The translations under genes were made by a program, and so were the position numbers. A DNA stretch of 64,000 nt from Calycina herbarum (taxonomy: Eukaryota > Ascomycota > Leotiomycetes > Helotiales > Pezizellaceae): NCBI GenBank assembly GCA_001414485.1, contig LLEY01000229.1:1-64000 (forward strand). Direction: 5' to 3'. Numbering within the stretch: the stretch's first letter is position 1; each line of letters starts with the position of its first letter. The notes beneath the pieces are model-generated. The model was given only the letters and a program-made list of their open reading frames with translations. It did no database searches and was not told the origin of the DNA. Of this stretch, positions 2,291 to 44,969 are shown piece after piece.

Positions 2291-2532
2291 TATAACGGTT
2301 TATATCTGAAGAGTACTCGGTCTACCGACCTTCGTACGAAACGTGACCTTACGTAACCTCGATATAAGAGGTTCTAATATCGTTCTAATAACCGGTAATT
2401 ATATATAGCCTCTACGTATAAAACCTCTTTCCTCGTACGTAGAATAAACTTCTTCTCTTTTCTTTCTTAGTTAATTCTTCTTATAATAAAGATAACCTTA
2501 TCTATTAACCTCTTTATATTCGGTCTATAATA
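2291..2532 (+). repeat. 5' LTR of element C
   Basis: This 242-bp sequence begins TATAACGGTT and ends CTATAATA (TG...CA ends mutated to TA...TA). Both ends and several internal blocks, including GAGTACTCGGTCTAC and the last 70 bp, recur at 31752-32117. The middle of the two copies differs by indels. Confidence 0.8.
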
Positions 2533-2667
2533 TTAGAATTAACTTATCCTTTCTTATATTCGTTTATTAAATACGTTAAATAAACTATATATAGTAGATT
2601 CTATAAACCCTTCTTATATATATAGTATAAGTACGAAAATCCTTTATAGTTGAAATATACGGTTTTA

Positions 2668-2795
2668 TATAAATATAATAGTCTAAAGTATATAATAGAC
2701 AACTATAAATATAATAGTTCGAAATATATAGTAGACAACTATAAATATAATAGTCTAAAATATATAGTAGACGACTATAAATATAATAGAGGATA
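2668..2795 (+). repeat. 36-bp tandem repeat in element C leader
   Basis: TATAAATATAATAG recurs at 2668, 2704, 2740 and 2776, an exact 36-bp period with three full copies and a partial fourth. Since 36 is 12 codons, the repeat stays in frame and gives the only ORF over 60 codons in the first 25 kb (2650-2859), with a 12-residue unit of the type YKYNSLKYIVDN. It lies between the LTR and gag of element C. Whether it was ever translated is unknown. Confidence 0.8.
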
Positions 2796-2989
2796 TAAAC
2801 TTAGCAGACGTATAAGGATCTATATAAGAACCTCCGTAGTAGTTAATAGACATATTTAACTAGTAGTAGCGAGAGATATAGCTTCTTACTAAAAGTTAAA
2901 ACTAGTTAATAGCGAATCTTTCTAGCTAATAAGACGAAGCTCTTATAAGACTCGAAGTAAGACTTTCTCTCTCTAAAGAGAACGAAACC

Positions 2990-4080
2990 ACCTCTTTATA
3001 ACCTACGTCTACTTCTATACTAGCCTTAGTTACGAATACTAATCGTAAGCTAAAACACTACCTTCTATACCTTAAAAGATATAACAGAAGTATACCTAAT
3101 CTCTTTTCTTAATTCAAAAGCCTTTTATAAGCAAAGCTAGAAATAGATAGTCCGTTAATTAGAGAAGAGAAAGAGAGAGTTTAGTATACCTTTAGACGAC
3201 TCTTAGAAGACGTAGCTATAAGGAATTTTTCATAGATAGAATACGCTCGCTTATAAAGTAAGTTTACAGTTTTAGAATTTATAAAACAGCTTTATATAGT
3301 GTTTTATAACCCTCGACTGTAGTAAAAAGCACTTAGCTAGATTAACTAAACAAAGTAAGGCTAATAGCCTTTTAGTAAATCTTTTAACGAATTTAATTAG
3401 CTAATCTTAGAAGCTTCTAGCTAGAGATAGAACAACGTAATTAAGAAGAGCTACTTAAAAGCTACTCTTAGTATAAAGCTAATTACTACAACTGTTAGTA
3501 TTTAAGAAGATAGTACCTACGATAGGTATTATAGATAATTACGAATAATTACTAATTAGCTAAACGAAGTCGCTGAACTTATAGCTTAGTAAACGAAGAA
3601 GCTACGAACGACTTTACTTAAAGCTGAAGCTACGTAGAATTAAGCTACGTATAAATTAAAAGACAGTTCCTTATATAATATAATAGACTAGGAACTAACT
3701 ATAGCGGTCGCCTCTGCTTAACTAAAGGAACTACGTTAGAACTTAGACGAAGTCCTTACTAAAAGAAGAAGCTTAGGCCTCTGTCTAAGATATAGACTTA
3801 AGAGACACCGAGTCTAGGATTATAAGACGAAGATAAAGTAGGTAATAAAGAAAGCGTTACTTAAACAAATAAAGAAAGTCTAGGCAGCTACTATCTAGAA
3901 GAAAGACGAAGACGTTAAAAGAAGAGACGTAAAAGAAAAAGAAAGGATTATAAAGGTCTCTAACTCTAACTCTAACAATTTAGGAAAAGAATAGCTTCTA
4001 GTAAAAGACGCTATTAGAAGTAGAAGAAGGTTTTAAAGGAAGTAGTAGAAGAATAGATTAAGTTCTAAGAGAAGTTAATA
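2990..4080 (+). pseudogene. gag of element C (RIP-destroyed)
   Basis: A highly charged Lys/Glu/Arg-rich gag-type protein can be followed in one frame through many stops. A nucleocapsid zinc knuckle C-X2-C-X4-H-X4-C lies at 3782-3823: first Cys TGT at 3782 and His CAC at 3806 are intact, while the second and fourth Cys codons at 3791 and 3821 read TAT (Tyr), each a single G-to-A change. Further Lys/Glu-rich coding sequence follows. The start codon cannot be fixed. Confidence 0.7.
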
Positions 4081-5638
4081 GACAGTTCTCTGTTTTTAAT
4101 TTCTACGTTAGTTAATAAAGAATGTTTTATAAAGACTCTTCTTAACTCTAGATATTTATTATATAGACTTATTAGCTCCTTCTTCACTACCTAGAATAAC
4201 TTTTAACGTATTTCTATCTCCTCTTAAGAGCTCTCTAGCTTTGATACTCTCTTAGACGATATAGTAATAGAAGTCGTCGCTGTCTCTTTAGATATTAATA
4301 GATACTACGAAGCTAGGTTATTTCTCTACGTTGTTCCTCGCTTAGGGTTATATAATATAATTCTAGAACTCCTTTAGATTATTAAATAAGACGCTTGAAT
4401 TAATAGTCCTACTTCTGAATATCTTATCTTCTTAATAAATACACTTATATAAAATTAAGCTAAAATTCTAGAAGTAAGCAGCTCGAATTCTATCGATTAC
4501 TAGTCTATCTCTATTAAAGCTTTTTAGATAATAATAAATAAGTCTTATTAAAATATATAAGTATTCTTAGCTAGCTTACGAGATATTACTAAGGCTCTTA
4601 AAAAGACGAAGAAGATAAAAACAGATTCTTAAACAAAGCTACTACTATAATTCTAGGATTACCTTAGCGTCTTTAGCCTAAAAGACTTAGATAAAGTACT
4701 TCTTTTATAAGACGATAGAATAGACTACTAGATTAAACTTACGAAAGAAGATAGAAAGGAAGCTATAGTCTCTTAAGAGCTACTCTATAATATATCTTAT
4801 AATAAACTTCTTATTCTCTAAAAAACGCTTATAGAGTATATAGACAAAGGCTAGATTCGAGTTAGTAACTCTTCTGCCGCTGTCTCTATACTCTTTATAT
4901 AAAAGCTAAGAGAAGGTTTATAGTTCTATATCGATTACTATACTTTAAATAAAGTTATATAAAAGGACTAGTATCTACTTCTCTTAATCTATAAAACCTT
5001 ATAACAAGTAGAGAAGGTAAAATAGTATACGAAACTTAATATAAGCTAAGCTTTTTACTAAATCCGGATTATAAAAAGAGATAAATAGAAGACAGCCTTT
5101 TATATAAGATATAGATTATAGGAATAGATAGTTACCTCTTTTAGACTTGTAAATATACTAAGTACGTTCTAAAGATATATTAATTAGATACTATAGAAAT
5201 ACCTAGATAACTTCTACTCTACTTACGTAGATAATATTCTAATCTTTATAGATAGAACTCTTAAAGAATATAAAGAATAAGTTAAGCTTATTTTAAAGAA
5301 GCTTAAAGATATAGAGCTCTTTCTTAATATTAATAAATATAAATTCTTAGTTATATAGACGAAGTATCTAGGGTTTATTCTTAATATTAACTTAGAAGTA
5401 GAAATAGATCTAGAAAAGATAAAAGCGATTCTTAACTAGGAAGTACCTATAATAGTTAAGGCTATATAAAGCTTTCTTAGCTTTATAAACTTCTACTAAA
5501 ACTTTATTAAGAACTATTCTAATATTATAAGACCTCTTATAGAACTTACTTATAAGGAATACGTGTTTATATAGACGAACGAATATTAAGACGTCTTTAT
5601 ATAACTAAAGTATATATTTACTATAGCTCTAGCTCTTA
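4081..5638 (+). pseudogene. protease and RT part of element C pol
   Basis: After gag comes a retropepsin-like stretch (KTLLNSRYLLY, where DSG would be expected at NSR) and then a readable Ty3/gypsy reverse transcriptase. The catalytic YxDD box is at 5224-5235 as Tyr-Val-Asp-Asn: the second Asp codon GAT has become AAT. Connection-domain text such as KYLGF and FINFY follows. The frame is cut at the TA dinucleotide 5637-5638 by pogo P1 and resumes at 14639 in RNase H. Confidence 0.75.
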
Positions 5639-6832
5639 ACGTAGTTTATCAGCACCTCGCTAATATTAGTACCTCGCTACTTTTCCTCTTATAATTTACT
5701 TTACTATATAATAAATCAACTATAACCTATAAAATTTATTAAAACTAATCGGATTCTAATTAACTAGACATATCTATATCTTCTTAGCAGGTTCGTATAT
5801 TATAACTAGCTTTTCTATAAGTACTATAGTACTGCCTAGACAGTTGCCTCTTCTTCTAATTACCTCTCTTCGTACGTAAGTCGCGTTGTACCTGCTTATC
5901 TATATCCTTCTAAGCTAAAATATCCTATATATCCTCTACTATAAGTGTACTCTCTTAATAGACACGAGTCTTTTTAGCTCTATAGCGTTTACTTAGGGCT
6001 TTATTTACTACTTAAAGAGTACGTACCTTAGTAGATAGAATAGTTATCTCGTAGACTATTCGCTCTATACTCTTTACTAATATAGTAACTGTCTTAAAGA
6101 GTAGGGTTAGCGAGCTTCTCTAATAACAGGTAATTTGATTTTAAACAAGAGTTAATTATAAAAGAGCTTCGGTTAGGTTAGAAGAGGTCTAAGACACCTA
6201 AGAGAGAGAGTTAACACTTGACGGCCGAGGGGGAGTTAGAGTCTATAACCTTACGTTAAGCTTTAAAAGGACTGCTTATAGGTTAAAAGACACTAGGCTA
6301 GCTCTACGGAATCTAGCTTTAGCGTTTTAGATTATTATTAACTCTAAATACACTGCTGTAAAAGCTAGAAAGAACTCGACCTTAGTAATATAGTTAATAT
6401 AAGCCTTAATAAAAGTCTTAATTTAACGACTATACGTCTGTTTTAATATACTAAAACATCTAATATCGAGTAGCTAGGTTAAATAAGAAGAGTAAGGAGA
6501 CAGTCCGAGAGTTATAATATTATATACCTTATAGTACTCTTAGAATTCGGCGGATTCGTAACTCTTATATCTATTAAGGACTAGTATATAGTATAGACTC
6601 TTTACTCGACTAGTAGTAAATTTATCGAAGTGTTATAGCTATTCTAGACCTGTCTCGTTAATAGTCTATCTATTACTTATAGGTTTAATTACCTAATCGT
6701 TTAGAAGGTCGCTCTTAGTATACTAATTCGCGAGATAATTCTTCTCTTAAACTACTAAAAATAGAGATATACTCTAACCTTCGCTATTAATATAAGTAAT
6801 TGCTATAGCCTATTCCCGATTACCTAGCTAAA

Positions 6833-7293
6833 TATAACGAAACTCAAACGAACTAAACGAAGATAACTAAGTCTCGAAGGTTGGTATATAGGTAAGAAGT
6901 ATAGATACGCCGGGTTATTTACTTAGAAGTAAACTCGTTACTTATATTAAAGATATTAAATAAGATAATAAGATTAATAACTAAAGTTAAGTACGAAGCT
7001 CCTATCTAATAGCAGACGTGCTAGTCTTATATAGAACCTTTGTTTATATTAGAGTCCTACTTAGTAGAAGTCTCGAAAATAGAGTCCGACTCTATTTCTA
7101 GAGCTTCTTAAAACTAGACTCTATTACCTGACCGTTCTAACTAAGTTATATAATATAACTATAATAAGATTCTTAGAATTATATATTCTTCTATATTCAA
7201 TCCTTCCTACCTGTTAGAGTTATAATAGTGCTTGTCCTATTAGAGCGTCGCCTAGACTTCACTTATTTATATACTAGTATATAATTTATAACA
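6833..7293 (-). repeat. 3' LTR of A1
   Basis: 461 bp. On the + strand it starts TATAACGAAACTCAAACG and ends TTTATAACA; the minus-strand LTR begins TGTTA and its 3' end has decayed to TATA. Copies: 13506-13966, 16325-16785 and 23023-23483; shorter relatives at 32680, 33114 and 43819. Confidence 0.88.
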
Positions 7294-7789
7294 CTATCCC
7301 CTTCTTACCCTAGCGTGTCTCTACGCTAGAATATAACCTTAAAATATATCGTTAGAAAGGTATCGACCTTCTCTTATATATAAACATATCCTTCTCTTAT
7401 ATTAAATAGAAAGAGCGTCTAGCTCTTACTATACGAATCAAATCTATATAACGTCTAGCGACGACCTATTCTTTTTGTTATAAACAGTCTCGTCGATGCT
7501 TTCTAGAGCTCTCTAAATCCTCTTATTATTCTAAGTATATTTAGTCGAAAAGGTCTTATAATAGCCCTAGCTATCTCGTCGTTCCTTTCTCTAGGCCTTG
7601 AAAACCTATGTATTGTTTTTTCTTTAGCCTTATACGTAAACGATTCTTTATTACTCTTCCGAGTCCTTCTCTCTTAAGTCCTCCTCTTAAGTCTTCCTCT
7701 AACTAGTTTCCTATCTTCGAGATAGCTTCTTTCGTTAAGTAGGTACTCTCTAATAATATGTCCTTATCTAATCCTACTCCTAAGTTCTA

Positions 7790-10700
7790 GGTAGTTCTAG
7801 GTTTTATTAGTAGAACTTCTGAAGTTCTCTTAAGTAATAGTTAAGATTGTTTTTTAGTTCCTAAGTGTTTTCTAAGTATAGATAATTTAACTATTTAATT
7901 AAATACTTAACCTATCTTCTAATAAGTTTATAGTTAAGAATCCTCTTAACTTTATATTTAGCGTTTAAGTTTACTAGTTGAATTTCTATAAATAGAGCTA
8001 GTAGAGCCCTTAGTAGTACTATTTTAAGTAAGGATATATAGAATACTAGGTAGATGTTTATTATCTTTAGTAGCGCTAGTTTATAATTTAAAGGTCTCTT
8101 AACTTGTTTGATTTTAAATAGTCTAAGTTTTTTATAATCTAGTTTATTACTTAGTCTTTTTATATCGATGTTTTTTTATACTAAGTAGACTTTATCTCCC
8201 TCTTTTAGCGTTAGCTCCTAACTACGTTATTTATTATAGTAGTACGTGTTTCTTTCTACTACGAATTATAGGTCCTCTATAAGTTTCTTATATAAACTCT
8301 TAATTCTTAAGACGTGAATACGAGTAAGTTAGTTATTAATAGTTATAGATAACGGCTCTCGATACGTCGATAATTTATATCTATAATTAGTATAGAATAG
8401 CGTAATAAGTGTTATTTCTATTACTGAACTGTTATAAGTAAACTATGCTAAGAGTAGCAGTTCTACCTAGTTATCTTACTAGTAGTTTATATAATAACGA
8501 AGGTATGTTTTAACTACTTAATTTATCTGTTTATTTCTTCTATTTATTTAAGAGTAGAAAGCTATAGAGAGCTTCCTTTTTACACTTAATCGTTCTATAA
8601 GAGCGATCTAAAATTTTAAGATAAAGAGTTTATCTCTATCTAAGAGTATTTCTTTAGATAGTCTATATCTTAAGACTACTTCTCTAAGGAATACAAATAC
8701 TAATTCCTTAGCTATACTTAACTTTATATATATTATTAGAATTATATACTTTATAAGTCGTTCTATAATAACTAGGATTATGTTATACTTAACTCTTATT
8801 ATCGGATCTTTAGATTTTAGTAATTTAATAATAAAATCTATAGATATTAATTTCTAAGGTATCTATAGTATTAGAGTAGTGTTTATCTATCTATAAGAAG
8901 TATAGTAGGAAGCCTTATTCCTAGTATAGGTATTATATTCTACTATCACCTTCTTAACTACCGTAGATAACCGATTAATATAGTAGTGTTATCTTATTCT
9001 TTCAAGAGTTCTACGAATTCCTTAGTAGCTATAAGCGGGCGTAGTATAGTATTCTTATACGAACTCCTTTATATACAAGCTAAGAATCTATAGTTTCCTT
9101 TTTATATACTAGTTATAACCTTTATAGATGTTCTAGATCTTATCTATCTAGATGTCGTTTATTACTACTATCTTATATATAGTAGGTACTAAGTTGCTAT
9201 TTTCGTTATATTTTAATATTACTATATTAACGTATTTTTTGTTTTCCTTATAGCCTGGTTTCTAGCTTAAAGCATTAGCTCGAGTATTACTTATTCTGCT
9301 AATATGTCGAATAATTATCTTAAATCCTACTAAGGTTTTAGACTACCTAGCTAGGCGTCTAATAATAAGTTCCTTAGTCGTAGTAAATGTTTTTAGATTT
9401 AGATAATTAGTAAGCACTGTTACCGGGTACGACGTACCTTAGAAGTAAATCCTCTATTCTTTAAGAGCTAGAATAATAGCTATAAGTTCTTTGTTATAAA
9501 TACTATAATTCTATTATACTATATTAAAGGTTTTTAAGAAATATACTATAGATATAAGTTTTCCTATCTTATTTGGTTATAGATATATAGTACCTACTAC
9601 TACATCTAAGGCGTCTGTTTCTATTATACTTGGTTTCTTATAATTAAAATTATATAGAATAGGTTTTACTATAAACTATTCTTTGATTTCCTAGAAGGCC
9701 TTTTTAGCCTTCTTATCTTAGATAAAAGTTATAGCTTTCCTAGTTAGTATTAACATAGGTTTTATAATCTTTATATAGTCCTTAATAAATAGTTAATAGA
9801 AATTAGTAAATCCTAAGAAGGATTATATATCTTTAACGTTTTTTAATAATTCCTATTTAATAACTACTCGGATCTTTTCTAGATCTATTTCTATTTTTTC
9901 TAGGCGAAATACCTGTTTAAGAAAGAGAGTTTTTTCTATCTTAAACTTATATTTCAAGAGTTTTAAACGAGAGTCTACTTTGGCGAGTCTTCTTAAGACT
10001 TCCTTTATATAGCTCTTATATTCTTCTAGGTTTTTTAAGAAAATTAATATATTATCTAGGTAATATATAACAGTTATACTTAGAAGATCTTCTAGAATAC
10101 TATTATTCTATCTCTAATAAGTATCTAGTATATTAGTTAAACTAAAAGATATTACTATATACTTATAGAGTACTAATAGTAAGACAAACGTAGTCTTTAA
10201 TTTATAGCCTATCTTAATCCTAATTAATTTATAAGCGTTCTATTAATCTAGTTTTATAAATTTCTTTACTTAGTCTAACTTGTCTTATAAGTACTAGCTA
10301 GTTAGTATTAGATAAGCGTCCTTAATCGTTATATTATTTAATTCCCTATAATTAATATATACTCGTCTATTCGGGTTATTCTTCTTCTTAACGATAAGTA
10401 TATTCGAGGAAATAGACGATTTAGATTTTTAAATATATCTCTTCTTTATTCCTTATTAGATATAACTTTCTAATAAAGCTAAGTTATTCCGATTATATAG
10501 TCGAAGCTTCTACTTTCTAAGGTTATAGCTCTCTATTAGTTTAATCTTATAATTATATAGCTAATGTTTAAGAAGAGTATATATATCTTTTAAGTCTTTA
10601 AACAACTTTGTAAATTCTCTATACTACATAGGTATTTCGTTATCAGCTTTCTTACTAATCTATAGAGGACCCTAGACAAGGTGTCTTAGCATATTAGAAG

Positions 10701-12400
10701 AGGTAGCGCTAACCTCGTTCTAGCTTTAAAGTTATAAATACGAACCTATGTATTTATATCGACTAAAGGTTATCTTTCTAGTCTTTTAATTAATGTCTAG
10801 ATTATGTTTCTAAATCTATAGTATACTAAGTATTACTTTCTTACTCTCTATTTTAACGATATCGAATTATATATCTAAATAGTATTCTTTAATATTAACT
10901 TTCGCTAGAATAGTTTACTAATTAATAATCCTATTTTAGTATATAACATCTGTTCCGTCGACTACTCCTAGGCGATATAGTCTTATTCCTTTAATTACAA
11001 CGTTTAGCTTCTCTCGAGCTACTAGGGAAATAAATTTACTTATTACTCCTAAGTCTATTATAACTTATAACTTTTTCTCTTATATTTCTATAGTTATTAC
11101 TAACTGTCTTTCTCTTAAAGTATCGTTTAACTTTGCTTTAATATATTAGACTTCGAAAGATTAATATTCTTAATTATAATTCTTTCTCTTCTCGTTCTTA
11201 TACTATAGAAAGAATTTTACTCTTTCTTTGTTAGTATATACTACCTTATATACTAATTTGTATTCTACGATTCTTATAGTCTTAGGAATTCCTCTTATAA
11301 ATCATTTTAGTAATTGTCTATAATTATATTAGATCTATTTATAACTAGTTTCTGAAATAGCTTCTATAGACTATAGTTCTCTTATATATAGATAATCTAA
11401 AGTAGCTTTAAGTATACTTATCTCCGGCTTTATATATTAAACCCTGAATATATAGTCTCTTGAATTCTTCTCTCTAACTGCTCGAATTCAAGACTAAGGA
11501 AAGAATACTACTCTTACTTTATCTAATAATACTACTTCGTATATCTAATAATATTCTACTATTCTAGTAGATTCTAGTAATATTCCTTTAAACCGTTTTT
11601 ATAATAACTAATCTAAGGTTAGACTTAGTTTGTATTATATCTATTATACTATTGTTTCTTAAACTGTTTCTATAAACTATAGTTCTCTTATTAATAGATA
11701 GTAAGTTTCTTCCGGTTCCGTTTTAGCCTATCTAGTTATATCGAGCTCTCTTTACTCCTAGAATAGTATACTAAACAGCTGTTATAAGCTATATTTTCTA
11801 AATACTAGCCTATTATTTCTAATTAATATAACTATAATATATTATTTAAATTCTTCTAATATAATATCTTTAGATAGTGTCTTAAGAAAAGGGGTTTTAA
11901 TTCGCCCCTCGAATCCTATTAGAACTTACTATATCTATATACTAATTTTATCTAAAATATTATATATCCTCTATATATCCTCTACTTTAGAGTAGCTAGG
12001 TTTTTTAATTAGTTATCGTTTACGTTCTAGTTCTTTCCTCTTAATAGTTTTCTATCTAGTAATTAGGCTAACTAGAGTTATTATTTTAGAGTTATTAAAG
12101 TAGTTAGGTTAACTCCTTATATTATATAAGGACTTTAGAAGTCTAGCTTCTAGTTGTTAATATATATCTATCGATTTCCTTATTCGAATATTCTAAGGAA
12201 GGCCTAAGTTTCTCTAACTTCAGGGTTCTTATTTCTAACCTCTTCTTCTAAACTAGAAGATAAGTCTAATGTTTCTAACGAACTAGTCGATAGTAGTAAT
12301 TCGTATTCTATTCAAGGATATTACTTAGATAACTCTACTAATTATATATTATAAATTTCTTTAAGAAGTAGGTCTCTATTATTATTAGTATCTTATATAC
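7790..12400 (-). pseudogene. pol of A1 (RIP-destroyed)
   Basis: RT box at 10039-10062 reads YLDNILIF, with the second catalytic Asp changed to Asn (GAT to AAT). Downstream on the minus strand the integrase C-terminus has the GDKVYL-type motif, followed at about 7800-7960 by a chromodomain with KYKVKRILNYK and KYLIK, in which aromatic-cage Trp codons now read as stops. This places the element among chromodomain-bearing gypsy elements. No frame is open over 60 codons. Confidence 0.75.
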
Positions 12401-12479
12401 TACTAAATTCTTCGTTGTTTTTAATCTAGGTTCTATATTCTCGTGCTTCGAGTTCCTTATCTATAAGTTTAATACGATT

Positions 12480-13490
12480 AGTTTAAGCTACTTATTATTA
12501 AATAGTAGTATTAATTTATTTCTTTCTCTTAGAGTCTTTCTTCTTACTATACTTATTTACTCTATAGCTAGAGAGACCGTAGTTATAATATAAGTTCTAC
12601 TCGCGTCGACGATTTCGCTTCTCTTAGGAAAGTCCTTTCTTTTTCAGAAAGGTTTTCTTTTATATAGCGTTTACCTCTTTACTATGTTTAGCGTAAGAGT
12701 GTTTCCACTTTCCTAATCTCTTACTCTTTTCTCTCTACTTAGAGTTATTCTTCCTAAATTCGTATAGGCGGTTATTTAACTAAACAACTTCCTTAATTAT
12801 ACCTATAATAGTTAAGAACTATATATTCTATTTAGCTATTTCCTTATAGATATATACACTTTTAATCCTCTATAAAAGAGTTCTATAAAAGCGATAGTAT
12901 TCTATTCTAACTTTGTTCTATATCGTTAAAATTTATTAGTATAATCTATTACTAATCTAGTCTAGTATAATTCTAAAAGCTTATATATAGCTGTTCGGAT
13001 CGTATCGAAGTCTCTAAAGACTTTCCTAATAGTTACCTTAAATCCTCTCTAAGATTTAAATATAATCTTAGTTAATTCTATCTTTCCGTCTTTATTCTTA
13101 TTCTTAAAGAAATCCTCTAAATATAGCTAAGCCTATTCTAACGCTTATCTCCTAAGGTAGGAGATAGCGAAGATAGTTTATAAATTATAATTACCTTTAA
13201 ACTTGTTAGAGTTAAAGTTAAAGTAGATGTCTATTTAGAGAAGGAATAAATCGAGTTCCTTTCACTTCCTATAATATGTATCTAGTATCTTAACTTTAAT
13301 AGACTTAAGTACTTCGATCTTATAAAGCTTAGAGGCGTCTAGTATACTAATATTATCGTTGTTCCTAGTTAACTATATACCGGCAGGTGTTCTTCTAGTA
13401 GTACTTTTAGATGTTCCTATAATATTAACTCGACTAGTATTTAGACTAGCTGCTACGGAGGTTACTAAGGCTATAGCGACTGAACTTCTA
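12480..13490 (-). pseudogene. gag of A1 (RIP-destroyed)
   Basis: Gag follows the 5' LTR directly. The nucleocapsid knuckle at about 12550-12592 reads Y-YN-Y-GLSS-Y-RVNK-Y: all three Cys and the His of CX2CX4HX4C have been converted to Tyr by single C:G-to-T:A steps. The same block occurs in A2 (about 22060-22102) and A3 (about 42865-42906). Upstream gag sequence is colinear with A2 and A3. Confidence 0.72.
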
Positions 13491-13505
13491 AGTAAGTGCT
13501 TAAAG

Positions 13506-13966
13506 TATAACGAAACTTAAACGAACTAAACGAAGATAACTAAGTCTCGAAGGTTAGTATATAAGTAAGAAGTATAGATATACTAGGTTATTTACTTAGA
13601 AGTAAACTCGTTACTTATATTAAAGATATTAAATAAGATAATAAGATTAATAACTAAAGTTAAGTACGAAGCTTCTATCTAATAGCAGACGTGCTAGTCT
13701 TATATAGAACCTTCGTTTATATTAGAGTCCTACTTAGTAGAAGTCTCGAAAATAGAGTCCGACTCTATTTCTAGGGCTTCTTAAAACTAGACTCTATTAC
13801 CTAACCGTTCTAACCGAGTTACGTGATATAACTGTAATAAGATCCTTAGTATTATATATCCTTCTATATTTAATCCTTCCTATCTATTAGAGTTATAATA
13901 GTACTTGTTCTATTAGAGCGTTGCCTAGACTTCACTTATTCACGTACTAGTATATAATTCGTAATA
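13506..13966 (-). repeat. 5' LTR of A1
   Basis: 461-bp partner of 6833-7293. It ends GTAATA on the + strand where the other copy has ATAACA. The duplication CTAAA follows at 13967-13971. Confidence 0.88.
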
Positions 13967-31433: not shown

Positions 31434-31435
31434 TA

Positions 31436-32679: not shown

Positions 32680-33113
32680 TATAACGAAACTCAAACGAAC
32701 TAAACAAAGATAACTAAGTCTTAAAGGTTAGTATATAGGTAAGAAGTATAGATATACTAGGTTGTTTACTTAGAAGTGAACTTATTACTTATATTAAAGA
32801 TATTAAATAAGATAATAAGATTAATAACTAAAGTTAAGTATAAAGCTCCTATCTAATAGCAGACGTGCTAGTCTTATATAGAACCTTCGTTCTCTAAGTA
32901 TATCGCTTTTATCGCTTATATCGCTCGCGTCGCTCGCGATTACAGCGATTAGAGCGATATAAGCGATCACGTTATATAACTATATATAACTTCTAACAGT
33001 CTTATAATAGTAAGATTCTAAAACCCTTAAATACCTTCTATATTACTAATTTCCTTCTATATTACCTTCCTTTCCTAGATGTCGTATCTTATCTTATTAG
33101 AGAGCTGTCTAGA

Positions 33114-33560
33114 TATAACGAAACTCAAACGAACTAAACAAAGATAACTAAGTCTCGAAGGTTAGTATATAGGTAAGAAGTACAGATACGCCGGGTTGTT
33201 TACTTAGAAGTGAACTCGTTACTTATATCAAAGATGTCAAATAATATAATAAGATTAATAACTAAAGTTAAGTACGAAGCTCCTATCTAATAGCAGACGT
33301 GCTAGTTTTATATAGAACCTTTCGTACTACCCGGATCCTTATACAAGCCTGGATCCCTGGATCCCTCTAGATCCCCTAAGGGATCCGAGAGGATCCATTA
33401 CGTGACTACTAATGATTATCCAACAGTGAGATCCGGAAATACCTAAATGCCTTTGTATTACTGATTTCCTCCTATACTACCTTCCGTTTCCTAGATATCG
33501 TGCCTTGTTCTATTAGAGCGCCGTCTGAACTACTTACCACGTATAACGTGATTCGTAACA
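33114..33560 (-). repeat. solo LTR of an A-related subfamily
   Basis: 447 bp with the family ends (TATAACGAAACTC ... GATTCGTAACA) and a 5-bp duplication CTAGA (33109-33113, 33561-33565). No internal region follows, so the element was lost by LTR-LTR recombination. Its right half has normal composition with few TpA changes. In the middle third it carries a GGATCC cluster instead of the GCGAT words. Confidence 0.88.
33333..33402. repeat. GGATCC palindrome cluster inside solo LTR
   Basis: The hexamer palindrome GGATCC occurs five times in about 70 bp, plus one variant TAGATCC. Such spaced palindromes can fold into hairpins; a protein-binding or structural role is possible but not shown. Confidence 0.7.
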
Positions 33561-35576
33561 CTAGACTACTTACTACGTAGCTGTAATTCGTAACACTATC
33601 CCCTTCTTAGACTAGCGTGTCTCTACGCTTAAGTACACTCTATGAAAATATCGTTAAGAGACTAACAGCCTCTCTCGCTTCTATTATATCGTTAACACCT
33701 CTCTTAAAAGATAGACTTAAATAATATAGAACTCTTAACACTCTTTATATTAAACGTATAAGACGTGAAATAACTTCTTATAATTATTATATTAATATAA
33801 AAACCAGCTATCGATGTATTAGTATTACTAGAGGTTCTAAGTATTCTAAATATACTAGGAAAGGTAAATCCTATAATATTAAGAAGTAAAATTAAATACT
33901 CTTACTTTTTAAGTAAGAATCTCTTAATACTTAGAAGCGATAGTTATAGTAAGAAGAGGAGATAGCTTATAAGGTTTAAGAAGAAGCTATATAGAAGATC
34001 CTTCGACTATAGAAACAATAACGCTTTCTTACTAAGCAGGAGTAAGAAATGCTCTATTATAGTCTTACTAATCTATAAGAGCTTAATAAAGCTAAAGAGA
34101 GAGAAAGAGAAGAGAAAGAGAAGAGAGAGGTAGAGGTCGCCTAGCTAGCAGCCTCTTCTACCTCTAGTAGCTCTACTTTTATTAAGCTATCTCTTAATTT
34201 AGCCTTTCTCGAGGCTTTTCCTTCTAATTACGAGATGTAGGTAACTCTAGGTTTTAGTAGTAGAACTTCTAAAGTTCTACTAAGTAATAGTTAAGATTAC
34301 CTCTTAGTTTTTAAGTGTTTTCTAAATATAGATAATTTAACTATTTAATTAAATACTTAACTTATCTTCTAATAGGTTTATAGTTAAGAATCTTTTTAAC
34401 TTTATATTCAGTGTTTAGGTTTACTAGTTGAATTTCTATAAGTAGAGCTAGTAGTACTCCTAGTAGTACTAGTTTAAGTAGAGATATATAGAATACTAGA
34501 TAGATATTTATTATCTATAGTAGTACTAATTTATAATTTAAAGGTCTCTTAACTCGTTTAATTTTAAATAGTCTAAGTTTTTTATATAATCTAGTTTATT
34601 ACTTAGTCTTTTTATATTAATGTTTTTCTATACTAAGTAGACTTTATCTCTCTCTTTTAGCGTTAGCTTCTAACTACGTCGTTTATTATAATAGTATACG
34701 TTTCTCTTAGTAATAAACTATAAGTCTTCTATAAGTTCTTTATATAACCTCTTAATTTTTAAGACCTAAATATAAGTAAGTTGATTATTAATAGTTATAG
34801 ATAGTAGTTCTTAATATACTATTAATTCGTATCTAAAGTTAGCGTAGAATAGTATATTAAGTATTATTTCTATTACTAAACTATTATAAGCAAACTATAT
34901 TAGAGGCAGTAGTTCTACCTAGTTATTTTACTAGTAGTTTATATAATAACGAAGGTATATCTTAACTACTTAATTTATCTATTTATTTCCTCTGTTTATT
35001 TAAGAGTGAAAAGCTATAGAAAGCTTCTTTTTCGTACCTAATTATTCTATAATAGCGATCTAAAATTTAGAGGTAAAGACTTTATCTTTATCTAAGAGTA
35101 TTTCTTCTAGTAGTTTATATCTTAAGATTACTTCTTTAAGAAATATAAATACTAGTTCCTTAGCTATACTTAACTCTATATATAGTACTAAAATTATATA
35201 TTTCGTAAGTCGTTCTATAATAACTAAGATTGAGTTATACTTAACTTCTATTATTAGATCTTTAGATTTTAATAGTTTAATAATAAAATCTTAAGATATT
35301 AATTTCTAAGGTATCTATAGTATTAGAGTAGTATTTATCTATCTATAAGAAGTATAATAGAAAGCCTTATTCCTAGTATAGATATTATATTCTACTATTA
35401 CTTCCTTAACTATTATAGATAATCGATTAATATAGTAGTATTATTTTATTCTCTAGAGAGTTCGACGAACTCTCTAGTATCTATAAGCTAGTACCGAATA
35501 ATATTCTTTAATAAATTCTCTTATATATAAATTCAGAACCTATAACTTTCTATTTTTATATCTTTCTTTATTATTA

Positions 35577-37723
35577 ACGTGGTTTATTAGTACTCTACGT
35601 ATATTAGTACTCTACGTACTTTTCCTCTATCTTATTACTTTAGAATATAATTAAATAACTATAATATATTAAATTAACTAAAACTACTTAGAATCTAATA
35701 AACTAGATATATCTATAGCCTCTTAATAAGTTCGTATATTATAACTAGTCTTTCTATAAGTGCTATATCGTTACCTAGAGAGTTATCTCTTATTTTATCT
35801 CCTCTTCTTAGAACGTCTATCGCGTCGAGCCTATTCCTCTGCCTCTCTTTAAGCTAATACGTCCTACGTATCCTCTATAGTAAGTATACCTCCTTAATAG
35901 ACCCGAGTCTTTTTAGCCCTGTAACGCTTACTAAGGGCTTTATTTACTACTTAAAGAGTACGGACCTCTGCTAATAAAAGAGTTACTTTATATACTAACC
36001 GCTCTCTACCCTTTGCTAATATAGCAACTGTTTGAAAAATAGACGTTAATAAGCTTTCTTAATAACGTGTAATATAATTCTTAACTAAAGTTGTTTATAA
36101 AAGAGCATTAGTTAGGTTATAAGAGGTCTATAAGACCTAAGGGTCAGCGTTCGCAGAAGAGAGGTTATAACGGCACGAAACGGATACTACTACAAAAGAG
36201 GTATATGGGAGTGCGTTCGGTAGAATGACATATCCGAATACTAGGCTCTGATACGAAGGAAAAGACCAAATTGGTCTTTCCTTAAGAGAGAGTAAGGGCA
36301 TCTATATACAAGAGGGCCGGATAATAACAAAAGTCCGTACCGATCCGGCTCTGACAATTCCGAAACCATCTGTGCCGTACTATACTCGGCACGTATTCTT
36401 GGCTATTCCGATGGCTCGGCAATTCCATAAATAGCTGGCCATCACAGAGGTTAGTAGGTTTAAGAGTTCGTAATCGGATATTAAGCTTTAATATTATAGC
36501 TTAGAGATTAAAAGATACTAAGCCAGCTCTGCGGAATCCAGCTTAGGCGTTTTAGACTATTATTAATTCTAAATATACTACTTTAAAGGCGAGAAAGAAC
36601 TCGACCTTAGTAATATAGTTAATATAAGCTTTAATAAAAGTCTTAATTTAGCAACTATATACTTGTTTTAATATACTTAAATATCTAACGTCGAGTAGCT
36701 AGATAAGATAAGAAGAGTAAGAAGGTAAGCAAAGAGTTATAATATTATAAGCTTTATAATACTCTTAGAATTCGGCGGATTCGTAACTCTTATATCTATC
36801 TAATACTAGTATTCGATATAGACCTCTTATATAAGCAGTAGTATACTTATCAAAGTGCTAAAGCTATTCTAGACCTGTCTTATTATTTATCTATCTATTG
36901 TTTATAGGTTTAATAACCTAGTTATATAGGAGGCCGCCCTTAGTATACTAATTCTCGAGATAATTCTTCTCTTAAACTACTAAAAATAGAGACATGTTCT
37001 AACTCTCGCTATTTATATAAGTAATTACTATAGTCTATTCTCGATTACCTAGCTAAACTGCCTTACCTCTGCTACGTCGATTAGCGCGTATAACAACTAT
37101 AGCTAGGCTTATAGTATCTATTATAAAGCCTGTCTTATCGAAGTTATAGAAGTTATAATCTAAAACACTGTATTTTACTCTTATATTCTCTATAAGTTGA
37201 AACTACGCGCTAATAAGCGCTAGATCTTCGTATAAGGCTCTTTAAAAGTCGTAAATACGATTAAAACGTGTCTTTAATTCTAGTCGACGTTATACGAATT
37301 AAGATATCTAGAGCTTACTAACGCGTCTTCTCTTCCGCGATTCGAAGATATAATTCGCTATATCTTCTATACTAGCTAGCTAGAGCGTAAATCCTCTTAT
37401 ATCTAAATTAAGTATATATCGAATAACTACCTCCTTCTCTAAGTTGTTTAATTTAAGGTTTAATAGTAGACGTTTATAAAGAGTAGTATAACCGTTTATT
37501 CGAAGTTAAAGCGTAGATTTAGAAATATTATAGATTTTCGTAGTAGACCGACGACTTAGCTTTTTAGCTATATAGATAGCCTTAATAGCTAAGATAATTC
37601 GTGCTTCTTACGTTTGAATTTCTATTTAGAGCGGTTGATAAAACGCGTGTTAAAGTTAGAGTATAGTTAATAGAGGAAAAGTACGTAGAGTACTAATATA
37701 CGTAGAGTACTAATAAACCACGT
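35577..37723 (-). mobile_element. pogo/Fot1-like DNA transposon P3
   Basis: 2147 bp, TA on both sides (35575-35576, 37724-37725). Terminal repeats start ACGTGGTTTATTAGTACTCT and contain TTAGTACTCTACGTA twice in tandem. The transposase on the minus strand is colinear with P1 but clearly a different family. Its extra 290 bp relative to P1 and P2 is explained by an insert at about 36165-36465. Without it the length is about 1.86 kb, as in P1 and P2. Confidence 0.9.
36165..36465. mobile_element. insert of normal base composition in P3
   Basis: About 300 bp absent from the homologous place in P1 (near 6165-6240). Unlike everything around it, it keeps many CpA/TpG steps and reads as ordinary sequence. 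A possible TG...CA unit runs from TGACATATCC (about 36228) to CATCACA (about 36446), which would fit a small solo LTR, but no matching 5-bp duplication is seen. No coding capacity recognised. Confidence 0.55.
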
Positions 37724-38343
37724 TATACTTATTTATAGTATAGTAAATATTAGTGAAATCCCTTCTCTAAACTAGGTTAGATAGTATATCCTCCTATTTA
37801 GCTAACTCTAGCTAATCCTTCTTCTATACCTACTATATCTTTTCTTACTATAGATTGTTATTTCTTATAATAGCGATTTTATAAACTATAGAGGCTAAGT
37901 CTCTATTCTTAAGAGTTTTTAAGATTATAATCTTCTTATACTTTTTATTTCCCTTATACCTAGGTTTCTAGTTAAGAGTATTAGCTTAAGCGTTTAATAT
38001 TGTCTTTATATATCGAATAATAATATTAAACCCTTCTAATATCTCTAACTATCTAGCTAACTATCTAGTTATAAGTTCCTTAGTTATTATAAACGTCTTA
38101 AGATTCTTATAGTTAGATAAAACTATAACTTAGTATTTTACTAGCTATAAGTAGATTCTCTAGTATTCTAAAGCTAATACTATAATAAGTAATTCTTTAT
38201 CAAAGATACTATAGTTTTATTATACTAGGTTAAATATTTTAGAATAGTATATAATAGGTATAAGTTTTCCTTTATTATTTAGTTATAAGTAAATTATACT
38301 TATTACTATATCTAAGACGTCTATCTTAATTATACTAGGTTTA

Positions 38344-38776
38344 ACGTATATGTATAGCGAACCGGCTAAACAAGCGAACCGGCTAACTAAAAACACATCT
38401 AAAATCGCGATTTTGACATTTTAATATCTCTACGAACTATTAATCAAAAGTTTTAAAATTAAAACTTTAATTTCATTACTATATATATATTTAGAATTCT
38501 AAGTTTCAGACGCTATATGATTTTACTTAGCGATTCGCTTAAAAATACCTTTATAATCTTATCTTTTTTCTTCTTCTTTTAATAACTTTTTAATATAAAT
38601 TAGCCTTAGTCTTACATTTTATAACTTTTATATTTATATAGTAATAAAATCAAAGTTTTAATTTTGAAATTTTTAATCAACAATTCGTAAAGATATTAAA
38701 ATATTAAAATCGCGATTTTAGGTATATTTTCAGTTAGCCGGTTCGCTTGTTTAGCCGGTTCGCTATATATACACGT
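38344..38776. mobile_element. MITE with P2-type ends
   Basis: 433 bp, TA on both sides (38342-38343, 38777-38778). The ends start ACGTATATGTATAGCGAACC and carry GCGAACCGGCTAA twice, matching P2. Behind them the inverted repeat continues, imperfectly, for about 130 bp more (for example AAATCGCGATTTT on both arms). There is no transposase. The uninterrupted target is preserved in A2 at 19127-19128, confirming clean insertion into TA. It was probably mobilised by a P2-type transposase. Confidence 0.92.
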
Positions 38777-41477
38777 TATCTATATTAAAATCGTATAAAA
38801 TAGGTTTTTCTATAAACCTTACTTTAATTCTCTAAAAAGCGTTCTTAGTCTATTTATTCTAAATAATTTTAATAGCCTTTTTTACTAATACTAATATTAG
38901 CTTAGTAATCTTTATATAGTCTTAGATAAACAGACAGCAGAAGTTTATAAATCTAAAGAAGAACTATATATCTTTTATATTCTCTAGTAATTTCTAGTTT
39001 AAGATATCTTAGATCTTTACTAGATCTATTTCTATTTTCTCTAAGCTAAATACTTATCCTAGAAAAAGTATCTAAGTTACTCTAAACTTGTATTTTAAGA
39101 GTTTTAATTAAGAGTTTACTTTTATAAGCTATTATAAAACTTCTTTAATATATCTCTTATATTCTTCTTCTTTTTCTAAGAAGATTAAGATATTATCTAA
39201 GTAATAAATTACTATTACTTCTAAAAGATCTTCTAAAATATTATTATTTTATCTCTAATATATAGCTAGTACGTTATATAGTCTAAATAGTATATCTATA
39301 TATTTGTAAAGACTTAATAGTAAGGCGAATACTATCTTTTATTTATCTTTAACTTTTATTTATATAAGTCTATAAGTATTTTATTAATCTAGTTTCGTAA
39401 ATCGTACTACTTTACTTAACTTATCTTATAAGTATTAGCTAGGTAGCAGGCGATAAGCGTTCTTAACTATAGTATAATTTACTTCTTAGTAATTAATATA
39501 TACTCTTCTCTCTAGGTTGTCTTTCTTTTTACTAATAAGTATATTTAAGGTAATTAATAACTTAGATTTCTTAATATATCTCTTCTTAATATCTTCTCTT
39601 ATATAACTTTCTATCTTTTATAAGCTTTTCTAGTTATATAACTAAAGCTTCTACTTTAAAAGATAATAACTCTCTTTTAATTTAATCTTATAATCCTATA
39701 AGTAATATTCTAGCAAGGCTTATAAATCTTCTAGGTTTTTAAACAAAGCTCTAAATTCTCTATACTATATAGGTATTTTGTTATTAGCTGGTTTACTAAC
39801 CTATAGAGGACCTTAGATAAGGTGTTCTAGTGTCTTAGAAGAGGTAGTACTAACCTTGTTCTAGCCTTATAGTTATAATTATAAACCTATATAATTATAT
39901 TAACTAAAGGTTATTTTCTAAGCCTTCTAGTTACTATTTAGATTATATTCTTAAATCTATAGTATACTAAGTATTACTTCTTTACTTCCTATCTCGATAA
40001 TATCAAATTATATATTTAAATAGTATTCTTTAATATTAACTTTTATTAGAATAGTCTACTAATTAATAACTCTATTTTAGTATATAATATCCGTTCTATT
40101 AACTACTCCTAGATAGTATAGCTTTATACCTTTGATTAAGATATTTAGCTTCTTTAAAGCTATTAGAGAAATAAAGTTACTCGTTGCTTCTAAGTCTATT
40201 ATAACTTATAACTTCTTTCCTTATATTTTCATAGTTACTACTAACTGTCTTTCTTCTAAAGTAGCGTCTAATTTTACCTTAATATATTAGACTTCAAAGG
40301 ATTGATTTTCTTAGTTATATTTTCGTTCTTTCTTACTTTTATACTATAGAAAGAATTTCACTCTTTCCTAGTCTATATATACTATCTCGTATACTAATTA
40401 GTATTTTATAATTCCTATAGTCTTAGAAGTCCTTCTTATAAATCGTTTTAGTAAGTTTCTATATCTATATTAGACCTACTTATAACTAGTCTTCTTAATA
40501 GTTTTTATAGACTATAGTTCTTTTATATATAGATAATCTAAAGTAGCTTCTAGTATACTTATCTCTAGTTTAATATAATAAACCTTAAAACTTCTTCTAC
40601 TATTATCTTTCTTTAAAGAGCTTAAGAAGAATATCACCTTTTTATTATTAGAAAAGACTACCTTATATATTAGACTATCTTCTATAGTTCTCTTAAGTTT
40701 TAGAAGAGTTCTAATAAAACATCTCTCTATTAACTAGTCTAATATAGTATATAGTTTATATTAAACCTATTTAATAGTTGTTTTTTATAAGGTTTTAGTA
40801 ATCTATCGTTTACCTTCTTTTAGTTAGTAAAATTCCTAGATTAGAGTAGCTTAGAGGTTTACTTAAATAACTCTAAATATCTGCTAATCTTCTAATTCTT
40901 TAAATAATATTACTATTTCTTTCTTTACTCTTAATATCTAATATTTCTTATTAATTTCTAACTTATAGTCTTAACTAGGTAAGTAGGTAGTAATATCTAA
41001 TTTTAGATATCTATTATATTTATTAAAACCTTCTAGATAATACTACTACTATTTAATAATATTATTCTTTAAGCTAGTAACTATCTATAAGTCTCTCTTC
41101 TCTAGGTAGTTGTTTAATACTATCTATTCTAGTCTAGGTTCTTTAAATTTAGTAGTTCCTCTTCTAGTAATATAGCTAACTATTATTACTTAGTCTTATT
41201 TATTCTAAACGATTATATAAGTAGTTAAAACTATAGAGTTAATTCCCTAAGTAGAATATAGATTCTAAAAATTAGGTTTTTAATTTTCTATATATACTTA
41301 TCTATTCCCTCTCTTAAAAGTTCTAATAAATACTTATGTCTTACTCTATTTAGGCTTATATATTCTTAGATCTACCTCTAATAAATTAGATACTAATTCT
41401 AACGATTCTAATAAACTTATTAATAGTAGCGATTCGTATTCTACTTAAAGAGGTAATTTATAATCTATTTCCGACTA

Positions 41478-42603
41478 ACGTGTTTTATAAGCGAGCTGGC
41501 TATATAAGCGAGCTGGCTATATAAGCGAGCTAGTTACTTTTCCGAATAACTTATTTTTAAATATAAATTACTTAATACTAGAATAAGCTATTATATTATA
41601 TAAGATACTATAAGATTATTCAGAGTCGTTACTATCTTTAGCATCTACTATTTCTACTTAATAAGTACGAGAATTATATCTAATTTTACTATAACGTCTA
41701 TAGTACCTCTCTACTCGAACCTTCTTTTTTATCTCTCTACTACTCTTCTAATCGCTATTTTCTATAGAAGTAATTAAACTAATTACCTCCTCTACTATTA
41801 ATATCTCTTAACTCTGGATATATTTCCTTTTCTAACTTTTATACTTAGTTATCTTACGAAGATCTGTGATTTCTTTCTATATTAATACTATTACCTAATC
41901 TATTATATTAACTTCTTAAATAACTATAACCTATTCGCGATTACCTAGCTAAACTTTTTTATATCTCTCGTATATCTCTAAACTTATAATAATAAGCTAA
42001 GATAATATAACATCTATTATAAAACTAGTCTTATTAAAATTATATATATTCTTATCTATAATACTATGTTTATCCTTAAATAACTATATAAGTATAAACT
42101 ATAGGCTAATAATCCGCGGATCTTTAGTTAAAGCTTACTAATAATTATAAGAACAACTCTACCGAGTTTTTAGCTTAGATATACGCCGAATAAAGTTGTC
42201 TAGCTAGTTCCTGTCTATAGGCTGTCTATCGCGCTTCTTTAGTAAGTTATTAGCTATATCTCGTACTATATCCTTTATAGGTAAAAACTCTCTCGAATCC
42301 TACTTTAATATATACTTAATTATCGCCTCCTTCTCTAGCTTCGTAAGTTTCTTCGAATTAGGCTTGTAATCGCGTCTTAGTTAGATTCTAGCGCGTCGGC
42401 TTGAAATAGTAGATCGAGGGGTATTATAAGCCTTTGTAACGCTTCGTTAGGTAATTAACGTATTATTTTTAAGTGCTTAGATAGCTAAGTTAATCTTGTT
42501 TTCGTTAGAAGACATTTAAGCGTTGTTTAGTAGAGATAATATAACTAGAAGTTAATAATTATTATAAAGTTTGAAAAGTAGCCAGCTTGCTTATAAAACA
42601 CGT
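41478..42603 (-). mobile_element. deleted pogo/Fot1-like element P4
   Basis: 1126 bp, TA on both sides (41476-41477, 42604-42605). The ends start ACGTGTTTTATAAGCGAGCT. The left end carries the unit TATAAGCGAGCTGGC three times, the right end only once. A transposase remnant on the minus strand retains the NFNKTSFII block (first-Asp region, Asp to Asn) and N-terminal sequence, while the C-terminal half is missing. An undisturbed site is visible in A2 near 21856. Confidence 0.88.
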
Positions 42604-42605
42604 TA

Positions 42606-43800
42606 TATATTATAATATTCTTTAAGTAGTAGATTTCTATTATTATTAGTATTCTAAACTCTACTAGCTTATAACTCGATCCCTTCGTTTAGCTATAGGT
42701 ATATAGCGTCTACTATTATATTTATAGCGTCTGTTTTAATCTACGTACTATATTCTCTAGTCTTAAGTTCTTCGTCTATAAGTTTAATTTTATTAAGTAA
42801 AGCTACTTCTTTTTTAACTATAGTATTAATATAACCTTTTCTTTTAGAGTCTTTCTTCTTACTATACTTATTTACTCTATAACTAGAGAGGCTATAGTTA
42901 TAATATAAGTTCTACTTATATCGACGATTTTACTCTTCTTAAGAAAGTCCTTCTTTTTTTAGAAAGGTTTTCTTCTATATAGTGTTTGTCTCCTTACTAT
43001 GTTTAGTATAAGAGTATTTCTACTTTCTTAATCTTTTACTCTTTTCCTTATATCTAGGGTTACTTTTCTTAAATTCGTATAGGCGGTTATCTAGCTAGAT
43101 AACCTTCTTAATTATATTTATAATAGTTAAGAACTATATATTCTATTTAGCTATTTTCTTATAGATATATACTTTTAATCCTTTATAGAAGAGTTTTATA
43201 AGAGCGATAGTATCTTATTCTAATTTTATTTTATAATATTAGAATTTATTAATATAATCTATTACTAATCTAGTTTAGTATAGATCTAAAAGCTTATATA
43301 TAGTAGTTTAGATAATATTAAAATCTTTAAAGACTTTTCTAATAGTTATCTTAAATCCTTTCTAAGATTTAAATATAATCTTAGTTAATTCTATCTTTCT
43401 ATCTTTATTCTTATTCTTAAAGAAATTCTTAAAGTATAGCTAAGCCTATTCTAATACTAATCCTCTTAAGTAGGAGATAGTAAAGATAGTTTATAAATTA
43501 TAATTACCTTTGAATTTATTAGAATTAAAGTTAAAGTAGATGTCTATTTAGAGAATGAATAAGTTGAGTTTCTTATACTTTCTATAATATATATCTAGTA
43601 TCTTAATTTTAATAGACTTAAGTACTTCGACCTTATAGGGCTTGAGAGCGTCTAGTATACTGATATTATCGTCGTTCCTAGGTAACTGTATACTAGTAGG
43701 TGTTCTTCTAGTAGTACTTCTAGATGTTTCTATAACGTTGACTCGACTAGTATTTAGGCTAGCTGCGGCAGGTGTTGCTAGGGCTATAGCGACTAAACTT
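42606..43800 (-). pseudogene. gag of A3
   Basis: Among the better readable gags: on the minus strand the first 60 or so codons are free of stops, from an Ala/Thr-rich start through SRVNVIETSRSTTRRTP to an acidic LDALKPYK segment. RIP stops increase downstream. The zinc knuckle at about 42865-42906 is converted to Tyr at its Cys positions as in A1 and A2. The gradient matches the RIP boundary close by. Confidence 0.72.
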
Positions 43801-43818
43801 CTAAGCAGGTGCTTAAAG

Positions 43819-44264
43819 TATAATAAAACTTAAACGAACTAAATAAAGATAACTAAGTCTTGAAGGTTAGTATATAGGTAAGAAGTATAGATACGCTGGG
43901 TTGTTTACTTAGAAGTGAACTCGTTACTTATATCAAAGATATTAAATAAGATAATAAGATTAATAACTAAAGTTGAGTACGAAGCTCCTATCTAATGGTA
44001 GACGTGCTAGTCTTATATAGAACCTTCGTTCTCTAAGTACATCGCTTTCATCGCTCGCGATTACGGCGATCAGGGCGATATAAGCGATCACGTTACATGA
44101 CCATACGTGACTTCCAACAGTCTTACAATAGTGAGATCCTGAAACCCTCAAATGCCTTCTGCATTACTGATTTCCTCCTATGTTACCTTCCTTTCCTAGA
44201 TGTCGTGCCTTGTCCTGTCAGAGCGCCGTCTGGACTACTTACCACGCAGCCGTGATTCGTGACA
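43819..44264 (-). repeat. 5' LTR of A3, half RIP-free
   Basis: 446 bp. The part left of about 44040 is TpA-rich; the part right of it is nearly unmutated (ends CGTGATTCGTGACA). The middle holds GCGAT/ATCGC words in alternating orientation (about 44041-44090), able to form a hairpin. The duplication TATAG follows. Confidence 0.9.
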
Positions 44265-44269
44265 TATAG

Positions 44270-44812
44270 ATTCAGAGATATCAGCTGTAAGTGAAGGAGC
44301 AAGAGAAGCGGCGTGGCTTAAGAAGCTATAGAAGGATATAGGGGAGACATTTACGATACCCTCACTTTACTACGATAACGAGGCAGCTGTACAACTTTGT
44401 AAAGATACTAAGTTCTATTAAAGATCTAAGTATATTGAAACTAAACACTTATACGTACGAAACGACATAGTTCAAAGGAATCGCCTTAAAGTGCTCAAAA
44501 TACTAGGAAAGAACTAACCTGCTGATATCCTTACTAAACAACTTATAAAGGATACGTTTAATACACATTGTCGAACGCTTGGGATGAAAAAGAAGGATTG
44601 AGTACTCTTATACCGTGGTACAAGTGTAAGGCACTTCGTGGAGCTGCCGAACTTCCAAAGAGGAGACGTAGGCACTACAACTGTAGGTTGTTACAGGAGT
44701 TAAGGAGGCTCAAGGGATTAACTTTGCAAACTTGGCCAATTTGAGGAGGCTTGGCAAGTGGGAATAGCTTCACTTTGACAAGTGGATCAAGAGCTTATTA
44801 CGTATGGGGGAG
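44270..44812 (+). pseudogene. copia element D, RNase H C-terminus
   Basis: The + strand continues the frame cut at 32679: SEISAVSEGAREAAWLKKL, then YYDNEAAVQL, KYIETKHLYVR and ADILTKQL, the standard end of Ty1/copia RNase H. A few stops remain (after KKL, in TKFY*RSK and KN*PAD) at Gln/Trp-like positions. The sequence is otherwise of normal composition. A purine run (GTATGGGGGAG) leads into the LTR. No full D element exists in the window because the 5' part is missing. Confidence 0.88.
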
Positions 44813-44969
44813 TGTCAGAAATCAGGTGATTTGGGGGCCAAATCTTGTTGCTTAATAAGCCCTTGGAACATATTTAGACTGTTTGTCCGTATAGACAACT
44901 TAGACTCGTAATCATCGAATCCATCAATACACAGATCAAAACCATCACTTCCATCCCCCATTCTTGACA
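44813..44969 (+). repeat. 3' LTR of copia element D
   Basis: 157 bp from TGTCAGAAATCAGG to CATTCTTGACA, with the canonical inverted ends TGTCA...TGACA and the purine tract directly before it. It joins the aldo-keto reductase relic without a gap; the next five bases ATGAT should be one copy of the target duplication. No 5' LTR was found in the window. Confidence 0.85.

What the first reader, a model, noticed from the sequence alone, without database searches (positions are those of the whole stretch)
2291..44969. Readable nest of transposons with intact target duplications
Seen: five LTR insertions keep perfect 5-bp duplications (A1 CTAAA, A2 GTTTA, B AAAAC, A3 TATAG, solo LTR CTAGA) and five pogo-type insertions keep TA on both sides. 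Host reading frames resume across the junctions (C integrase across B, C pol across P1, copia RNase H across A3). This gives relative ages: C before P1, B and P2; P1 before A1; B before A2; D before A3; A3 before its four inserts. A nest this legible under heavy RIP is uncommon and allows insertion dating.
Basis: seen in the sequence. Interest (0 to 1): 0.75.

Follow-up and report, generated by a model that had tools for sequence, protein, structure and literature searches.

The report
Nested fungal transposons with hidden recombination
A stretch of fungal DNA holds transposons inserted inside other transposons with their insertion scars still readable, an ordinary kind of structure, but the supposed oldest layer is probably two different insertions fused by recombination.

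Summary
All five 5-bp duplications and all five TA pairs are exact, and the flanks of every named insert, kept apart, lie side by side in other copies. The local insertion orders are right. Three things change the interpretation. (1) C (2291-32117) is probably not one insertion. It has no target duplication (ATAGA against GAGAT); its left flank is a fragment of another repeat, F, its right flank the copia element D, and their continuations are missing. Its LTRs are of two types (242 and 366 bp), while three complete C copies elsewhere have matched LTRs and perfect duplications; one of ten other C loci typed at both ends is also mixed. Most likely C is a recombinant between a C in F and a C in D; an assembly mis-join is not excluded. 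(2) A sixth readable LTR insertion was missed, a solo LTR in P3 with GAGGT duplications. (3) The nest is neither rare nor dateable as claimed: 7 of 9 B copies keep perfect duplications, 78 nested clusters are published for another fungus, and the LTR pairs hold 3 transversions in 1,595 sites. Ordinary nested, RIP-mutated transposons with an instructive scar.

The parts
1..2062 (+). E: degenerate repeat related to the A family (1227-1898 is 83% identical to A3 40758-41429)
2063..2290 (.). F fragment; homologues continue past the C site (GTTCGTAGA|CCTTTCG), the window does not
2291..32117 (+). C: Ty3/gypsy-type element in four pieces (2291-5638, 14637-15754, 28956-29573, 31434-32117); left LTR 2291-2532 short type, right LTR 31752-32117 long type; no target duplication
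5639..14636 (-). P1: pogo-type element (TA 5637-5638 and 14637-14638), split by A1
6833..13966 (-). A1: gypsy-like LTR element, duplication CTAAA (6828-6832, 13967-13971)
15755..28955 (-). B: gypsy-type LTR element split by A2; duplication AAAAC (15750-15754, 28956-28960)
16325..23483 (-). A2: LTR element, duplication GTTTA (16320-16324, 23484-23488)
29574..31433 (+). P2: pogo-type element with DDE_1 match; TA 29572-29573 and 31434-31435
32118..32679 (+). D left piece; abuts the right LTR of C to the base; the upstream part of five D copies tested is absent from the window
32680..44264 (-). A3: LTR element in D, duplication TATAG (32675-32679, 44265-44269), carrying solo LTR, P3, M, P4
33114..33560 (.). 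solo LTR of an A-related subfamily in the left LTR of A3, duplication CTAGA
35577..37723 (-). P3: pogo-type element in A3, TA both sides
38344..38776 (.). M: 433-bp palindromic MITE-like element with P2-like ends, TA both sides
41478..42603 (-). P4: P3-related element, no DDE_1 match in the three minus-strand frames, TA both sides
44265..44969 (+). D right piece ending in its right LTR (about 44813-44969)
44970..45637 (+). aldo/keto reductase reading frame that starts at about residue 22 of its homologue, right after D

Best explanation
A RIP-mutated transposon nest in a fungus related to Hymenoscyphus. Shown: A3 inserted into D (copia); a solo LTR, P3, M and P4 inserted into A3; a further solo LTR inserted into P3; B, P1 and P2 inserted into C sequence, A2 into B, A1 into P1. 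Inferred: D entered an aldo/keto reductase gene; and C is a recombinant. One C of the short-LTR type had inserted into F at GTAGA (now ATAGA, as RIP would give), another C of the long-LTR type into D at GAGAT. A crossover between them, probably right of about 5.4 kb and at or before the right LTR, left F|C|D without the continuation of F and the left part of D. The solo LTRs are taken as products of LTR-LTR recombination (established for such elements, recalled).
For: Exact duplications and adjacent flanks. For C: ATAGA/GAGAT; F runs on past the site in 4 of 4 homologues looked at (a fifth, L016, was not looked at there); D homology starts at the base after the C LTR, 5 D copies shown run on to the left, and the upstream part of 5 D copies is not in the window except through LTRs and unrelated inserts; LTR-to-LTR 17 transversions in 233 sites, against 1/248, 1/260 and 4/369 in three complete C copies, which have perfect duplications CTTAG, CTTTT, CTAAG; ends of like type in 9 of 10 other loci typed at both ends; sites agreeing with short-type against long-type copies 182 to 71 left of P1 but 66 to 68 right of it (Fisher p 1.3e-5).
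Against: Right of P1 the affinity is only neutral, not clearly long-type. Three reference copies were used, and retrotransposon copies can be mosaics. No reciprocal junction was found above the level of reversed-pattern controls. The contig begins at window base 1, so what lies further left is unknown. No long reads.
Confidence: 0.78

Rival explanations
1. The F|C|D arrangement is an assembly mis-join between two C copies; the insertions themselves are real.
For: C is repeated (39 other loci match one piece, with only 40 of 254 candidates scored); the contig begins at window base 1; unlike ends and flanks are what a mis-join inside C would give.
Against: The other copies are 80-91% identical to the window in that piece, which accurate long reads separate; the other junctions tested are clean.
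Confidence: 0.13
2. C is one insertion; its duplication decayed, one LTR was altered by gene conversion, and the flanks were rearranged later.
For: Copies with LTRs of two subfamilies, ascribed to gene conversion, are reported for crapaud in Podospora (PMC10787394, section 8 read); one other C locus here also has mixed ends.
Against: Gene conversion of an LTR does not exchange flanks; F and D abut the two LTR ends to the base; ATAGA and GAGAT do not differ by RIP changes only.
Confidence: 0.07
3. The junctions are chance matches in AT-rich sequence.
For: AT-rich sequence raises chance matches (0.0038 per 5-mer, 0.032 per TA pair).
Against: Flanks are adjacent in independent copies or in sister copies for each named insertion.
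Confidence: 0.01

Closest known systems
Nested transposon clusters of Mycosphaerella graminicola (PMC4522978; abstract passages and section 8 read)
   Same: LTR elements within LTR elements, 7.5-63 kb, verified duplications mostly of 5 bp, low GC, RIP-like mutation; one cluster of 47 kb
   Different: Here each named layer was checked against empty sites, and the base element looks like a recombinant
crapaud LTR elements of Podospora anserina with terminal repeats of different subfamilies (PMC10787394; abstract and section 8 read)
   Same: Full copies whose two LTRs belong to different subfamilies, under RIP
   Different: There ascribed to gene conversion; here the outer flanks differ too, which points to a crossover
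RIP-mutated gypsy and copia elements of Hymenoscyphus fraxineus (PMC8254937; passages read)
   Same: A flank protein of the window is 85% identical to one of H. fraxineus; gypsy and copia elements with RIP signals; an AT-rich 64 Mb genome
   Different: The word 'nested' does not occur in that paper's main text

Membership tests
Ty3/gypsy LTR retrotransposon (C, B) | RT and RNase H domains of the gypsy type between LTRs | tested here: met
   RVT_1 and RT_RNaseH_2 in C and in B; LTRs
Ty3/gypsy LTR retrotransposon (C of the window as one insertion) | LTRs alike at insertion and a 5-bp target duplication | tested here: not met
   ATAGA/GAGAT; LTRs of two types
Ty3/gypsy LTR retrotransposon (A1, A2, A3) | gypsy-type pol domains | tested here: inconclusive
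   2 of 6 open fragments, both of A1, match RVT_1 and SH3_Tf2-1 below the curated cut-off; the other 4 (one of A1, one of A2, two of A3) gave none
Ty1/copia (D) | RVT_2 reverse transcriptase | tested here: met
   RVT_2 in the D copy L043; the window pieces themselves gave no match
pogo/Fot1-type DNA transposon | DDE_1 transposase and TA duplication | tested here: met
   DDE_1 above the cut-off in P2 and P3, below it in P1, none in P4; M not tested. TA in 5 of 5. So met for P2 and P3, weak for P1, by ends only for P4 and M
RIP | C-to-T transitions in repeats, chiefly at CpA, with few transversions | tested here: met
   CpA+TpG observed/expected 0.14-0.28 in most nest pieces, 0.45 in M, 0.53 in the solo LTR, 0.94 in the right piece of D, 1.08 in the flank; ten B copies differ by 7-10% with 0-2.1 transversions per kb; C read as T: CpA 0.42, CpG 0.23, CpC 0.055, CpT 0.026

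The most novel reading that the evidence does not exclude
The nest marks the breakpoint of a larger rearrangement: a crossover between C elements in two separate nests fused two chromosome regions, so that the left part of D and the first codons of the aldo/keto reductase gene now lie elsewhere, and RIP-mutated nests act as recombination hot spots in this fungus.
Probability: 0.3. Interest if true: 0.4.

Novelty: new member of a known kind. Interest (0 to 1): 0.25.

Why it matters
It shows that perfect duplications around inner inserts do not make the base of a nest one event, so relative dating from nests needs the base element's own duplication and LTR types checked. The B family is a useful case for dating under RIP: ten copies differ by 7-10%, almost only by transitions, and 17 of the 18 transversion sites seen are private to one copy, so transversions over the whole body may date where LTRs are too short.

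Tried and rejected
Searched for the reciprocal junctions (D-left|C and C|F-right) with two degenerate patterns: 13 and 10 hits against 28 and 12 for the reversed controls, none convincing. Tried to rank ages by LTR transversions: too few events. A1 and A2 as empty sites for P3 in A3 left about 90 bp unaligned; closer A3-type copies settled it. Considered that the left flank of C was D: the upstream part of one D copy, L031, does match window 2063-2290, but within an F-type insert that other D copies lack there, so rejected. The integrase and the copia RNase H could not be shown by Pfam in the window pieces.

Rows dropped: for the typing of C ends I copied 39 of 41 rows, 63 of 78 and 32 of 56; left out were the window's own rows, short extra pieces, wrong-strand pieces and LTR-only matches without a nearby pol match. 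Those tables are themselves capped (40 candidates scored of 254, 196 and 200). 21 of the 39 loci could be typed at one end or both, 10 at both.

Full report
Setting. The window is the first 64,000 bases of contig 145 (80,224 bp) of an unnamed 68.8 Mb genome. A flank protein (49887-52046, minus) is 85% identical over 92% of its length to one of Hymenoscyphus fraxineus, the best hit after the window's own; that species is a helotialean ascomycete. From 1 to about 44,000 the sequence is AT-rich and RIP-like: CpA+TpG observed/expected is 0.14-0.28 in most pieces, 0.45 in M and 0.53 in the solo LTR, against 0.94 in the right piece of D and 1.08 in the flank. The RIP signal falls off between about 43.4 and 44.2 kb, largely within the right end of A3.

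Duplications. All those named are exact. Two random 5-mers of the nest are equal with frequency 0.0038, and TA falls at both of two random places with frequency 0.032.

Empty sites. I aligned the flank pieces separately to relatives and asked whether they lie side by side. A2-in-B: 9 of 9 B copies (one search lists 28 matches besides the window, at 27 or 28 places). B-in-C: 11 of 11 distinct C copies (L005 and L047 are one element). P1-in-C: 10 of 11; L002 lacks the site. P2-in-C: 9 of the 9 copies that reach it, of 11. A3-in-D: 12 of the 12 that reach it, of 13 distinct D copies. P3-in-A3: 2 of the 2 that reach it, of 3. M: adjacent in A2 and in 3 of 3 relatives, within about 6 bp in A1. P4: adjacent in A2, within about 5 bp in A1. 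A1-in-P1: P3 runs across with a 5-bp overlap. Solo LTR: the right LTR of A3 runs across. The relatives are those fetched, not all copies in the genome.

A further insertion. P3 holds a 281-bp LTR (36166-36446) between GAGGT duplications. The stretch of P3 that holds it is 339 bp; without 281+5 bp it would be 53 bp, exactly the length of the matching stretch of P1 (coordinates). I assign it to F because it is 95% identical to one end of an F-type copy in L031, and in L031 and L039 such repeats bound the stretch that matches window 2063-2290; that assignment is inferred. The nest is thus four deep here: D, A3, P3, solo LTR.

C is probably not one insertion. It has ATAGA on the left and GAGAT on the right. 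Left of it lies a piece of F. Five loci match that piece; the four looked at (L003, L031, L032, L039) continue past the site as GTTCGTAGA|CCTTT, so C entered F at GTAGA, now ATAGA as RIP would give. Right of it D begins at the base after the LTR, and the five D copies shown run on to the left where the window has C. The upstream parts of five D copies match the window only through LTRs and unrelated inserts. The left LTR is 242 bp, the right 366 bp, with 17 transversions in 233 aligned sites; three complete C copies have 1/248, 1/260 and 4/369 and perfect duplications CTTAG, CTTTT, CTAAG. From the hit tables, 10 of 39 loci could be typed at both ends: 6 long/long, 3 short/short, 1 short/long. 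Sites where the window agrees with two short-type copies against a long-type copy outnumber the reverse 182 to 71 left of P1, but stand 66 to 68 right of it (Fisher p 1.3e-5). I infer a crossover between two C elements; a mis-join remains possible. Patterns for the reciprocal products gave 13 and 10 hits against 28 and 12 for controls.

Dating. The LTR pairs A1, A2, A3 and B differ by 31, 29, 51 and 17 transitions but only 1, 1, 1 and 0 transversions, pooled 3 in 1,595 sites, 0.0019 per site, interval 0.0004-0.0055. They cannot be ranked. Ten B copies differ pairwise by 7-10%, with 0 to 2.1 transversions per kb. Private transversions over about 5.2 kb are 6 in the window copy and 0-4 in the nine others, with one shared: the window B may be the oldest of the ten, but six events is a small number. 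A paper on plants reports that about a quarter of nested elements have more diverged LTRs than their hosts (PMC7251063, abstract read), a further caution.

RIP context. Among the ten B copies a C seen in one copy is T in another in 42% of CpA, 23% of CpG, 5.5% of CpC and 2.6% of CpT cases.

Rarity. 7 of 9 B copies keep perfect duplications. Nested clusters with verified duplications are published (PMC4522978, section 8 read).

Gene. D ends at 44969; the open frame after it matches an aldo/keto reductase from residue 22 on, so D appears to sit in that gene, whose first codons are not next to it in the window.

Noticed in passing
44970-45637: An aldo/keto reductase reading frame begins at about residue 22 of its homologue, right where the LTR of D ends; D seems to have cut the gene.
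   Followed up: partly
L012-L020 and window 23489-28727: B copies differ by 7-10%, nearly all transitions; the divergence of this family is almost wholly RIP-like.
   Followed up: yes
L018, L015 (B copies): Two of nine B copies lack matching 5-bp flanks (ACTAC/GTACT; GATTT/GCTTT); the first may be another recombinant.
   Followed up: no
43400-44264: RIP fades within the right end of A3, and the D piece after it is hardly mutated; in 12 of 12 other D copies compared the right piece is also less mutated than the left, so this may be usual for D.
   Followed up: partly
window 1-2062: A degenerate element related to the A family ends at 2062 against F; whether it is inserted in F was not tested, since the contig begins at base 1.
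   Followed up: no
L012-L020 and window 23489-28727: CpG is the second most mutated context after CpA, ahead of CpC and CpT.
   Followed up: partly
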